Source of the DNA: Solirubrobacterales bacterium
GTDB taxonomy: Bacteria > Actinomycetota > Thermoleophilia > Solirubrobacterales > Solirubrobacteraceae
Assembly (NCBI GenBank): GCA_003132505.1
Contig: PKXY01000045.1
Coordinates: 30,569-94,568, forward strand
Reading direction: 5' to 3'
DNA length: 64,000 bases
The position numbers were made by a program, and so were the translations under genes. Below the pieces are notes generated by a model, which saw only the letters and a list, made by a program, of their open reading frames with translations, did no database searches and had not been told where the DNA came from. Below are positions 2,182-6,620 of this stretch, piece after piece. Positions within the stretch are counted from its first letter, which is position 1; each line of letters opens with the position of its first letter.

Positions 2182-3021
2182 ATGACGGAAGACGCCTCCG
2201 CTGATCGGGCGCTTCAGGGCGAGGGACTCCCCGTGGATCCGGCTGCGACGCTGCGGATCGCCATCCTCGACCGCGACTCCGGCTTTCTGCAGGTGCTCGA
2301 CAAGCGCCTCGAGCGCATCGGCTGGGAACGCCGCGTGCTGGCCTCCTCAGTCTCGCCACAGACGATCGTGCCGATGCGGCTGAGCGCGGTGATCGTTGAT
2401 CTCGCCGTGCTCGGACCGGCGTGCTGGGAGTGGCTCGAGCGTCTCTGCGGCGAGCTGCCCGAGCTCCCGGTCGTCGTCTGCACCGGCTCCTCGACGGTGG
2501 CTCAGCGCGTCCGCGGCCTGCGGCTCGGCGCCGACGACTGGTTGACGAAGCCGTGTCATCCGGAGGAGCTGATTGCCCGCGTCGAGGCTGTCGTGCGCCG
2601 CCGGCGCCGGCTCGAGTCGCCCCAGGACAGCATGCCGATCCTCGCCGGTGAGGTCGAGATCCACCGCGACCAGTACCAGGCATTCGTGAACAGCGTCAGC
2701 ATCGATCTGACGCGGCGGGAGTTCGAGTTGATCGAGCTGCTCGCCGGTTCGGGCGGCCGCGTGCTCGAGCGTGAGTTCATCTACCAGCGCCTCTGGGGTT
2801 ATTCCATGGTCCGGGGCGATCGCTCGGTCGATGTGTTCGTACGCAAGCTGCGCCAGAAGCTCGAGCGCGTCTCCCCCAGCTGGCGCTACATCCACACGCA
2901 CTTCGGCATCGGCTACCGCTTTGCCGCCGAGCCGGTCGATGGCCTTTCAACGGTCGCTGAGCTGGCGGCGCTCGCCGTCCTCTCAACCCCCGGCGAGGAG
3001 CTCGATCTCGCGCGGACGTAG
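2182..3021 (+). CDS. OmpR-family two-component response regulator
   Basis: 279 aa; receiver with Asp (VIVDLAVLG), Thr/Ser (CTGSS) and Lys (LTKP) followed by a winged helix (RSVDVFVRKLRQKLERVSPSWRYIHTHFGIGYRF). Confidence 0.9.
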   Translation: MTEDASADRALQGEGLPVDPAATLRIAILDRDSGFLQVLDKRLERIGWERRVLASSVSPQTIVPMRLSAVIVDLAVLGPACWEWLERLCGELPELPVVVCTGSSTVAQRVRGLRLGADDWLTKPCHPEELIARVEAVVRRRRRLESPQDSMPILAGEVEIHRDQYQAFVNSVSIDLTRREFELIELLAGSGGRVLEREFIYQRLWGYSMVRGDRSVDVFVRKLRQKLERVSPSWRYIHTHFGIGYRFAAEPVDGLSTVAELAALAVLSTPGEELDLART

Positions 3022-3459
3022 GAGAAGCACGAGTTCTCCGCGCACCCCGGCGAGCCGGATCGCAGCGAGGCCGCCCTTCTTCATTGCGACGTACCCGCCG
3101 GTGAGCGTCGCGACAAGCCCGGACATGTCTGGCTCGTGCCCGACGAGCATGAGCGAGCCGTCCTCGCTGGTCGCAGCGATCAGCTCGGCAGCGGCATCGG
3201 CTCCGAAGTCGCCGCCGAGCGGCTCGTGCAGGATCGGCTCGATCCGCAGCTCGACGCAGGCGATCCGTGCCGTGTCGCGGGCGCGCACACGTGGGCTCGC
3301 GAACACGAGCTCGAAGGTGACCCCGAGCCGGGACAGAGCGCGACCCGCGGCGCGGGACTGATGCTCGCCGCGCTCGGTCAGGCGGCGCTCGAAATCGGGA
3401 CCGCGGCCGTGTCCCTCGGCGTCGCCATGGCGGAGTAGCCAAAGTGTTTTCGCCATCAC
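2983..3459 (-). CDS. sixA: Phosphohistidine phosphatase SixA
   Basis: LWLLRHGDAEG...RAAGRALSRLG...VFASPRVRARDTARI...LMLVGHEPDMSGLVATLTG. Confidence 0.9.
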   Translation of the reverse strand: MMAKTLWLLRHGDAEGHGRGPDFERRLTERGEHQSRAAGRALSRLGVTFELVFASPRVRARDTARIACVELRIEPILHEPLGGDFGADAAAELIAATSEDGSLMLVGHEPDMSGLVATLTGGYVAMKKGGLAAIRLAGVRGELVLLLRPREIELLAGG

Positions 3460-3462
3460 CTG

Positions 3463-3474
3463 AGGCTATAGCCT
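3463..3474. promoter_or_regulatory. Palindromic -10-like element AGGCTATAGCCT between divergent genes
   Basis: 12-nt perfect palindrome containing TATAGC on both strands, between sixA (-) and the ppx remnant/CHAD operon (+). Confidence 0.4.
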
Positions 3475-3480
3475 GAGTGG

Positions 3481-3537
3481 GTGATCTGTGCGCGCATCGA
3501 CATCGGCTCGAACACGACCCGCCTGCTGGGGGCGTAG
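3481..3537 (+). pseudogene. Ppx/GppA exopolyphosphatase N-terminal remnant (18 codons then TAG), possible upstream ORF
   Basis: GTG ORF VICARIDIGSNTTRLLGA*, matching the Ppx/GppA N-terminal phosphate-binding motif (xIDIGSNTxRLLVA); stop is 3 nt before the CHAD ATG. Confidence 0.65.
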
Positions 3538-3540
3538 CGA

Positions 3541-3993
3541 ATGGCTGACATCGAGCTGCGCGCGGACCAGTCCTACAGCGAGGCGGGGCAGGCGGTCATT
3601 GGGGCGCGCGCCCGCGAGATGTTTGCCCGCGCCGAAGGCGTGCTTGACACGGATGACCCTGAGCGCGTGCACAAGATGCGAGTCGCGACGCGGCGCCTGC
3701 GCGCCGCCCTCGAGGTCTTCGGCGCCGGCCTCCCGCGCAAGCCGACGCGCGCCGCGCTCGCCGATGTGAAAAAACTCGCCGGTGCGCTCGGCGAGCGCCG
3801 CGACTGCGACGTGCTGATCGAGCTGTTGGACTCGCTGCGCCGCGAAGCTCGCAGCGCCGAACGAGCCGCCATCGACCAAGTCGTCAGCGAGCTGCGCGAC
3901 GAGCAACTCGAGGCCAACGCGCACTTGGCGAAGGCGCTCGCCCATGCCGAGGAGGTCGGCCTCGTGCGTTGCCTGCGAAAGCTTTCGCCGTGA
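3541..3993 (+). CDS. CHAD domain protein, N-terminal half
   Basis: VHKMRVATRRLRAALEVF...DCDVLIELL; ends at TGA 3991-3993. Confidence 0.8.
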   Translation: MADIELRADQSYSEAGQAVIGARAREMFARAEGVLDTDDPERVHKMRVATRRLRAALEVFGAGLPRKPTRAALADVKKLAGALGERRDCDVLIELLDSLRREARSAERAAIDQVVSELRDEQLEANAHLAKALAHAEEVGLVRCLRKLSP

Positions 3994-4466
3994 AGGCGCG
4001 AGAGATCGGCGCACTCGACCCGAAGATGGGTCTCGCCCGGGCGGCGCGGCGTATCGTCGCGGTTCGCACCGACGAGGTGTACTCGCTCGCGCCGGGCGCG
4101 CTCGCCGGCCAGGACGCGACGGCGCTCCACGACCTGCGAATCGCCGCAAAACGGCTGCGATACGTACTCGAGCTGGTCGGCTTCTTCTTGGGAGACGTGG
4201 CTGGCGAGGCCGAGACGCGCATGCGCGACCTGCAGACGCTGATCGGCGACGTCCACGACTGCGACGTCCTACTCGCACGTCTCGGGCAGCGCGAGCAGTC
4301 GCAGAGCAAGGGTATGCGCCGGCTCGCAGGTCGGCTGAGGACGCGCCGCCGCAGGCTGTTCGGCGAGTTCGTGGTCCTGTGGTCGACGATCGAGACTAGT
4401 CGGCTACACGAGCGAATCGTTGCCGCAACGAACTATTCACCGAATGGCACCCCCTTCGGCGCATAA
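3990..4466 (+). CDS. CHAD domain protein, C-terminal half (GTG start overlapping previous stop; TTG 3969 also possible)
   Basis: LHDLRIAAKRLRYVLELVGFFLG...DLQTLIGDVHDCDVLLARL; 4-nt GTGA overlap with the upstream stop. Confidence 0.75.
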   Translation: MKAREIGALDPKMGLARAARRIVAVRTDEVYSLAPGALAGQDATALHDLRIAAKRLRYVLELVGFFLGDVAGEAETRMRDLQTLIGDVHDCDVLLARLGQREQSQSKGMRRLAGRLRTRRRRLFGEFVVLWSTIETSRLHERIVAATNYSPNGTPFGA

Positions 4467-4469
4467 TGG

Positions 4470-6620
4470 ATGCTCGGCATGAGCAGCACAGACGCGATCG
4501 CACGCACGGATGGTGGCGATGGACTCGGCGAGCGAGCGCGCTTCGCTGATCCCGCGCTCTACATCAACCGCGAGCTGTCCTGGCTCGAATTCAACCTGCG
4601 CGTCTGCCAGCTTGCCGAGGACGCGTCACTACCACTCCTCGAGCGCGTCAAGTTCGCCGCGATCTACACGTCGAACCTCGATGAGTTCTTCATGGTCCGC
4701 GTCGCCGGCCTGCACGACCAGATCGACGCCGGCGTCGAGCGCACGAGCCTCGATGGCCTGACGCCGGCCCAGACGCTCGAGCTCGTTCACAAGCGCACGC
4801 TCGGGCACAGCATCCGCTTGCAGCGCTGCGTCAACGAGCGGCTGCTGCCAGCGCTCTCAGAGCACGGCATCGTCGTCAAGAAGGTGAGCGAGGTCAGTGA
4901 GACCGAGCGAGACGCGCTCAAGGCGCATTTCCGGCGCGTCATCTTCCCCGCCCTCACCCCGCTCGCGGTCGGCCCTGGCCAGCCTTTCCCCTACATCTCC
5001 AACCTCTCGCTGAGTCTTGGCGTGATCGTCAGCGACCCCGACTCCGGCCACACGGTATTCGCCAGGGTAAAGGTCCCGACCGAGATACTGCCGCGCTTCG
5101 TGTCGATCGGCTCCGGGGACACCTTCGTGCTGCTCGAAGACGTGATCGCCCACAACCTCGACGCGCTGTTCCCCGGCATGGTCATCGACGAGTACGACTG
5201 CTTCCGCGTCACGCGTGACGCGGATCTGTCGATCTCCGACGAGGCCGACGACCTGTTGCAGGCGGTCGAGAACGAGCTGCGCCGGCGTCGTTTCGGCGAG
5301 GTTGTGCGTGTCGAGGTTGGGGCTCGGATGTCGCCGCGAGTGCTCGAAGAGATCACCGCCGCGCTGCATCTCGAGCCGCGTGACGTCTACCAGGTCGACG
5401 GCCTGCTCGACCTCACCGGGCTGCTCCAGCTGACGAAACTCGCGGGTTACAGCGAGCTTCGCGTCACGCCCTGGGCCCCACTGACGCCGCCGCGGTTCCG
5501 CAGCGACGACGAGGGGCGCGCCGACGTGATGGCCGCGATGCGCTCCGGCGACGTGCTGGTGCATCACCCCTACGACTCGTTCTCCGCGTCGGTCGAGCGC
5601 TTCGTCGAGCAGGCGGTAGCCGATCCGCAGGTGCTCGCGATCAAGCAGACCGTGTATCGCACGAGCGATGACTCGCCGCTGGTGCCGGCGCTGATCCGCG
5701 CCGTCGAGCGCGGCAAGCAGGCGGTCTGCCTGGTCGAGCTGCAGGCGCGCTTCGACGAGCAGACGAACATCCAATGGGCGAACGCTCTCGAGGAAGCCGG
5801 CGTTCACGTCGTCTACGGTCACCCGGCGCTGAAGACGCACGCCAAGTGCGTGCTGGTTGTGCGTCGCGAGGGCAGCGGTGTGCGCAACTACGTGCATATC
5901 GGCACCGGCAACTATCACTCGACGACGGCACGCCTCTACACGGACTTCGGCCTGTTCACAACCGACGACGCAATCGGCTCCGACGTGGCGGAACTGTTCA
6001 ACTTCCTCACAGGGTTCGCGCGCCAGCGCAGCTACCGCAAGGTTCTCGTCGCCCCAAGCCACCTGCGGGATGCGATCCTCGACGAGATCGAGCAGACGGT
6101 CGCGGCTCACTCGGCGGACTCTCCAGCGCGGATCCTGATCAAGATCAACGCGCTCGTCGACAAGGGGTGCATCGAAGCGCTCTATGCCGCGTCGCAAGCC
6201 GGGGTACGGGTCGACCTCAACGTCCGCGGCATCTGCTGCCTTCGGCCCGGTCTACCAGGCATCTCCGAGACGATCCGCGTGGTCTCCGTCGTCGGACGCT
6301 TCCTCGAGCATTCGCGCGTCTATGCCTTCGAGCGCGGCGGCGAGCAGATCGTCTACATCTCCTCCGCCGACCTGATGCCACGCAACCTCGAGCACCGTGT
6401 CGAGCTTGCTGTGCCGATCGAGGACCCGCAACTGCGCGCCGAGGTTCTCGGAACCGTCGAGATGTGCCTCCGCGATAACCAGAACGCCTGGCAGCTCGAC
6501 GCCAACGCGCGCTGGACGAGACTGGGCGTGGGCGATGGGGAGCAGCCGTTCAGCGCGCAGGAGGAGCTGATGCGCCTACACCTGCTGCGCGCGGGCGAAA
6601 CGCCGTCAAGCAGCGGCTGA
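4470..6620 (+). CDS. ppk1: Polyphosphate kinase 1
   Basis: 716 aa; YINRELSWLEFNLRVCQLAED, TSNLDEFFMVRVAGL, HHPYDSF, IKQTVYRTS, HAKCVLVVRREG, HIGTGNYHSTTARLYTDFGLFT, RGICCLRPGLPG. Confidence 0.97.
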   Translation: MLGMSSTDAIARTDGGDGLGERARFADPALYINRELSWLEFNLRVCQLAEDASLPLLERVKFAAIYTSNLDEFFMVRVAGLHDQIDAGVERTSLDGLTPAQTLELVHKRTLGHSIRLQRCVNERLLPALSEHGIVVKKVSEVSETERDALKAHFRRVIFPALTPLAVGPGQPFPYISNLSLSLGVIVSDPDSGHTVFARVKVPTEILPRFVSIGSGDTFVLLEDVIAHNLDALFPGMVIDEYDCFRVTRDADLSISDEADDLLQAVENELRRRRFGEVVRVEVGARMSPRVLEEITAALHLEPRDVYQVDGLLDLTGLLQLTKLAGYSELRVTPWAPLTPPRFRSDDEGRADVMAAMRSGDVLVHHPYDSFSASVERFVEQAVADPQVLAIKQTVYRTSDDSPLVPALIRAVERGKQAVCLVELQARFDEQTNIQWANALEEAGVHVVYGHPALKTHAKCVLVVRREGSGVRNYVHIGTGNYHSTTARLYTDFGLFTTDDAIGSDVAELFNFLTGFARQRSYRKVLVAPSHLRDAILDEIEQTVAAHSADSPARILIKINALVDKGCIEALYAASQAGVRVDLNVRGICCLRPGLPGISETIRVVSVVGRFLEHSRVYAFERGGEQIVYISSADLMPRNLEHRVELAVPIEDPQLRAEVLGTVEMCLRDNQNAWQLDANARWTRLGVGDGEQPFSAQEELMRLHLLRAGETPSSSG

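What the first reader, a model, noticed from the sequence alone, without database searches (positions are those of the whole stretch)
3481..3541. 18-codon Ppx/GppA N-terminus retained as a possible upstream ORF of the CHAD-ppk operon
GTG ATC TGT GCG CGC ATC GAC ATC GGC TCG AAC ACG ACC CGC CTG CTG GGG GCG TAG encodes VICARIDIGSNTTRLLGA*, which matches the conserved N-terminal motif of exopolyphosphatases (Ppx/GppA, ASKHA fold). The rest of the enzyme is missing: three nucleotides after the TAG comes the ATG of the CHAD gene, followed by ppk1. The exopolyphosphatase, which opposes Ppk, seems to have been deleted while its start region was kept in front of the polyphosphate gene set. The remnant begins 7 nt after a TATAGC -10-like element, so the transcript could be leaderless and the remnant could serve as a translated leader coupled to CHAD. 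Decay versus function cannot be told from one sequence.
Basis: partly seen in the sequence, partly recalled or inferred. Interest (0 to 1): 0.72.

Follow-up and report, generated by a model that had tools for sequence, protein, structure and literature searches.

The report
Deletion scar of a polyphosphatase gene
The 18-codon reading frame is the two ends of a once complete ppx-type gene whose middle was lost in this species only; the species keeps two other ppx genes, so this is an ordinary recent gene loss whose leftover start site may still help translate the next genes.

Summary
Window 3481-3537 encodes VICARIDIGSNTTRLLGA*, the true start of a Ppx/GppA gene. All three held congeners carry an intact 295-296-codon ppx at this spot (sixA / ppx > CHAD > ppk1). 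In the window, codon 16 is joined to the last two codons and stop of a gene like that of congener G003 (...WGA*): about 831 bp lost in frame. No other of 61 relatives searched shows such a scar. The genome still has two intact Ppx paralogs; only the CHAD-linked one is gone, so 'the enzyme that opposes Ppk was deleted' overstates the case. The remnant shows one likely sign of decay: Arg where 17 of 17 orthologs have Cys. A TANNNT -10 ends 6 nt before its GTG; the same 6-7 nt spacing precedes ppx in all three congeners and three further relatives, and is enriched genome-wide, so a leaderless transcript starting at the remnant is likely. Coupling to CHAD (ATG 3 nt after the stop) is plausible but unproven; CHAD also has its own weak SD. 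Decay and function are compatible: the protein is dead, the start site may still be used. Side finding: the CHAD here is two half-domain genes with touching or overlapping ends, conserved across the class.

The parts
3463..3474 (.). AGGCTATAGCCT, a 12-bp palindrome. It supplies a TANNNT -10 (TAGCCT) on each strand, 6 nt from the remnant's GTG (3481) and 6 nt from the sixA ATG (3456): candidate symmetric bidirectional leaderless promoter
   Evidence: Read directly. TANNNT ends 6-7 nt before the ppx start in G001, G002, G003, G004, G008 and G028, and 6-7 nt before sixA in G001, G002, G003 and G008. Genome-wide TANNNT peak at 6-9 nt.
3481..3537 (+). Remnant ORF of the CHAD-linked ppx: codons 1-16 joined to what matches the last two codons and stop (GA*) of G003's gene
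   Evidence: Alignment with intact orthologs
3526..3531 (+). Deletion junction (CTG|GGG). The flanks of the deletion in congeners share only about 2-3 nt there
   Evidence: Comparison with the G001-G003 gene ends
2983..3456 (-). sixA-like phosphohistidine phosphatase, divergent from the remnant
   Evidence: PF00300; TIGR00249 E 1.3e-18, just below its cut-off
3541..3993 (+). N-terminal half of CHAD (first half of PF05235)
   Evidence: PF05235 positions 2-125 of 228
3990..4466 (+). C-terminal half of CHAD, starting GTG inside the TGA stop of the N-half (GTGA, 4-nt overlap)
   Evidence: PF05235 positions 142-227; conserved overlap
4470..6620 (+). ppk1, polyphosphate kinase
   Evidence: Four PP_kinase Pfam domains; conserved in 56 of 61 genomes

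Best explanation
The ORF is the scar of an internal deletion of about 831 bp in the CHAD-linked ppx paralog of a conserved sixA / ppx > CHAD-N > CHAD-C > ppk1 locus. It happened on this species' own branch, and two other Ppx paralogs remain. Shown: homology, the intact gene in congeners, the junction, the remaining paralogs. Inferred: the promoter and the GTG at the 5' end of a leaderless transcript survive, so ribosomes probably still load at the remnant, translate 18 codons, stop at TAG and re-initiate at the CHAD-N ATG 3 nt on, as they did when full ppx was coupled to CHAD. The peptide itself is most likely without function. The confidence given is for the deletion scar; I put the remnant being a needed entry site for CHAD at about 0.35.
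For: Three congeners have an intact ppx exactly here. A tree puts the Ppx proteins in three clades supported at 99-100; the window's genome lacks only the CHAD-linked one. Every other match to this 5' region in 61 genomes is followed by a Ppx domain, except one cut by a contig end. TANNNT 6-7 nt before the ppx start is conserved in six relatives, and 32 of 431 candidate starts in 252 kb of this genome have it at 6-9 nt against 0 of 301 internal controls. The ppx-CHAD junction overlaps or lies within 3 nt in close relatives. The 48-nt remnant differs from G003 at 5 positions, while fourfold sites of neighbouring genes differ at about 47%, so the scar is young or was long under constraint. CHAD and ppk1 show no faster change than in congeners.
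Against: Only one genome of this species is held, so fixation and raw-read support cannot be checked. The remnant has lost an invariant Cys (C5R). CHAD-N has a GGGGGC 7 nt before its ATG (about -8.4 kcal/mol with a generic anti-SD, between the 5% and 10% quantiles of random sites), so it may not need the remnant. The in-frame reading of the junction rests on an ancestor ending ...WGA* as in G003; G001 and G002 end differently, and a one-base alternative cannot be excluded.
Confidence: 0.8

Rival explanations
1. Pure decay: the remnant is an inert piece of the 5' leader; CHAD-N is translated from its own Shine-Dalgarno-like GGGGGC.
For: C5R at a residue invariant in 17 of 17 orthologs; SD-like GGGGGC at good spacing; young deletion, so sequence conservation needs no function.
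Against: The leaderless -10 places the transcript's first codon at the remnant GTG, so its translation is expected by default.
Confidence: 0.4
2. A selected regulatory uORF (attenuator or coupled leader) that was kept for its function.
For: Stop-to-ATG distance of 3 nt; the deletion reads in frame; leaderless transcripts and small proteins are common in mycobacteria (PMC4633059, title and abstract only).
Against: Seen in one genome only; no congener has it; no special codon run in the 18 codons; a one-in-three chance gives an in-frame join.
Confidence: 0.12
3. Assembly artefact: the real genome has an intact ppx.
For: Draft genome in 45 contigs, 91% complete; reads not available.
Against: The flanks of the deletion share only 2-3 nt, far too little for an overlap-based false join; no copy of this paralog elsewhere in the assembly; the join reads in frame.
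Confidence: 0.05
4. Chance similarity to the Ppx motif.
For: None found.
Against: DNA match to the ppx start of congeners at E 5.6e-18 in the same gene order.
Confidence: 0.01

Closest known systems
Ppx/GppA phosphatase family (PF02541; exopolyphosphatase and pppGpp phosphatase)
   Same: The 16 retained codons are its N-terminal phosphate-binding motif; the intact orthologs are full members
   Different: The remnant has no enzyme left; the lost paralog is a third clade distinct from the two Ppx kept in this genome
Leaderless short ORFs of mycobacteria (PMC4633059)
   Same: Short ORF starting at the likely transcript 5' end, in front of an operon, in a genome with many leaderless-type starts
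   Different: Arose by deletion inside a gene; translation not measured here
Symmetric bidirectional promoters (PMC10268837)
   Same: Palindromic -10 between divergent starts; start codons 25 bp apart, at the edge of the 7-25 bp definition
   Different: Transcription starts not mapped; both sides appear leaderless
CHAD polyphosphate-binding domain (PF05235, PMC6537752)
   Same: Both halves match the family and sit with ppk1
   Different: Encoded as two genes, one per four-helix bundle, rather than one chain

Membership tests
Ppx/GppA (as decayed gene) | Homologous start at the same locus in relatives | tested here: met
   G001-G003 intact ppx in identical gene order
Ppx/GppA (as functional enzyme) | Complete ASKHA domain with catalytic motifs | tested here: not met
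   Only 16 N-terminal codons remain; PF02541 does not hit here
Leaderless mRNA | TANNNT -10 about 10 bp upstream of the start codon | tested here: met
   TAGCCT ends 6 nt before GTG, conserved in relatives and enriched genome-wide
Leaderless mRNA | Transcription start at the start codon | not testable with these tools
   Needs TSS mapping
Translationally coupled leader/uORF | Stop close to the next start | tested here: met
   TAG, 3 nt, ATG
Translationally coupled leader/uORF | Conserved across species or strains | tested here: not met
   Only G000 among 4 genus members and 61 genomes
Translationally coupled leader/uORF | Translated, and needed for downstream expression | not testable with these tools
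   Needs Ribo-seq and reporters
Symmetric bidirectional promoter | Divergent starts within 7-25 bp sharing a palindromic -10 | tested here: inconclusive
   Sequence fits (25 bp between start codons); transcription starts not mapped

The most novel reading that the evidence does not exclude
Gene loss converted a leaderless enzyme gene into a minimal 18-codon leaderless translation-entry ORF that still drives the coupled CHAD-CHAD-ppk1 operon. That would show how leaderless operons constrain which deletions survive.
Probability: 0.35. Interest if true: 0.45.

Novelty: new member of a known kind. Interest (0 to 1): 0.27.

Why it matters
It is a clean, young example of paralog loss in a polyphosphate gene set. 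It gives a testable idea: when the first gene of a leaderless operon is lost, its start codon must stay to feed ribosomes to the coupled genes. It also corrects the metabolic inference: Ppx-type polyphosphate breakdown is not shown to be lost, since two paralogs remain. The neighbouring two-gene CHAD, conserved across the class, may interest specialists more than the scar.

Tried and rejected
Pfam on the remnant peptide joined to the CHAD start gave no hit; it is too short to score. A genome-contig scan with Ppk1 did not return this genus; it only identified one family member (G011) as an uncultured Solirubrobacter-labelled MAG, which places the family near Solirubrobacteraceae. A programmed frameshift joining the CHAD halves was rejected because the start-stop geometry changes between clades (-4, -1, 0, +1, +2), as expected for separate starts. 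No metagenome data could be searched for other strains of this species.

Full report
Observation. The 57-nt ORF at 3481-3537 is present exactly as written. The ATG of CHAD-N is at 3541, in the same frame, 3 nt after the TAG.

What it is. The DNA 3440-3600 matches the ppx start region of the three held congeners (G003 82%, E 5.6e-18; G002 81%; G001 81%). There, the gene order is phoU, response regulator, sixA on the other strand, ppx (295-296 codons), CHAD in two pieces, ppk1. In the window the ppx reads normally to codon 16 (CTG CTG) and then GGG GCG TAG. Congener G003 ends ...GGA TGG GGC GCG TAG, so the simplest reading is a join of codon 16 to the native last two codons and stop, with 277 codons (831 bp) lost in frame. 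The two flanks share only 2-3 bases. The other congeners end ...WGAA* and ...WSA*, so I hold the in-frame reading as likely, not certain.

How isolated it is. In the 61 genomes searched, every other match to this 5' region is followed by a Ppx domain match, except one cut by a contig end (searches compared row by row; G010). The genus holds four genomes; only this one has the scar. Other relatives lack this ppx without a visible remnant in the stretches I read: G006 keeps CHAD and ppk1, and G016 has sixA directly next to ppk1. So this paralog seems to be lost repeatedly in the family.

What is left. The window's genome has two other intact Ppx proteins, a 311-aa one and a 511-aa one with an HD-type extension. 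A maximum-likelihood tree gives three clades: Ppx-HD (100/100), the 311-aa type (100/99) and the CHAD-linked type (99/99). The window's species is present in the first two only (one G002 row of the HD type was not picked up by my filter). Hence the polyphosphatase function is not shown to be lost.

Age and constraint. Over the 48 retained bases the window differs from G003 at 5, from G002 at 5 and from G001 at 9; G003 and G002 differ at 6. Fourfold sites in ppk1, CHAD and phoU differ at about 41-61% between all pairs. The scar is therefore young relative to the species splits, or was under constraint for most of the time. The one amino-acid change unique to it, C5R, hits a residue that is Cys in all 17 intact orthologs, which suggests that the peptide is no longer selected as Ppx. 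CHAD and ppk1 do not differ more from congeners than congeners differ among themselves.

Promoter. A TANNNT hexamer ends 6 or 7 nt before the ppx start in the window, G001, G002, G003, G004, G008 and G028 (TAGCCT, TACCCT, TACAGT, TAGCGT). More distant relatives do not all show it. In 252 kb of this genome, TANNNT occurs 6-9 nt before 32 of 431 candidate starts and before none of 301 internal ATG/GTG controls. This agrees with published work: TANNNT about 10-12 bp upstream of starts marks leaderless genes (PMC3160421), and TANNNT is centred 7-12 bp upstream of transcription starts in M. tuberculosis (PMC3898074). On the other strand the same palindrome AGGCTATAGCCT (3463-3474) places TAGCCT 6 nt before the sixA ATG at 3456, with 6-7 nt also in G001, G002, G003 and G008. 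The two start codons are 25 bp apart, at the edge of the 7-25 bp range used to define bidirectional promoters (PMC10268837). Transcription starts are not mapped, so this remains a sequence-based inference. (My notebook gives slightly shifted palindrome coordinates; 3463-3474 is correct.)

Mechanism. If the transcript starts at 3481, ribosomes load on the remnant GTG, translate 18 codons and stop 3 nt before the CHAD-N ATG. In close relatives the full ppx stop overlaps the CHAD start or lies within 3 nt of it, so coupling is probably ancestral. Against necessity: GGGGGC ends 7 nt before the CHAD ATG, about -8.4 kcal/mol with a generic anti-SD, between the 5% and 10% quantiles of random sites. 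I give about 0.35 to the remnant being a needed entry site.

Side finding. The CHAD is two genes. In all 15 loci of the first set that hold both halves, the C-half start overlaps the N-half stop by exactly 4 nt (RTGA). In the wider class sample the geometry is -4 in most members of the same order and one other family, -1 (TGATG, TAATG), 0 or +2 in family f5, and +1 in G015; fused single frames occur in G047 and in families f6 and f7. PF05235 covers its first half in one gene and its second half in the other, and the solved CHAD domains consist of two four-helix bundles related by pseudo-twofold symmetry (PMC6537752). Term searches of the paper library found no mention of a split CHAD.

Verdict. 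An ordinary but clean and well-supported deletion scar, with a plausible, testable residual role as a translation entry point.

Noticed in passing
window 3541-4466; L063-L080, L212-L236: CHAD encoded as two half-domain genes, with 4-nt RTGA overlap in 15 of 15 family loci that hold both halves, and -1, 0, +1 or +2 geometry in other genomes of the class; separate initiation, one gene per four-helix bundle.
   Followed up: partly
window 3454-3483: Candidate palindromic bidirectional leaderless promoter between sixA and ppx, with a 6-7 nt spacer on both sides, conserved in the genus.
   Followed up: partly
L063-L066 ppx: In the CHAD-linked Ppx of G001-G003 and G008 the second phosphate loop reads GG[AS]S instead of the usual GGGS, which may alter activity.
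   Followed up: no
L076 (G016), L080 (G006): Other family members lack this ppx without a visible remnant: G016 has sixA next to ppk1 with neither ppx nor CHAD; G006 keeps CHAD and ppk1.
   Followed up: partly
upstream of ppx in L072, L073, L074, L082 and others: A recurring CATCATGGCAA motif lies some 10-20 nt before the ppx start in more distant relatives, where TANNNT is not seen at that spacing; role unknown.
   Followed up: no
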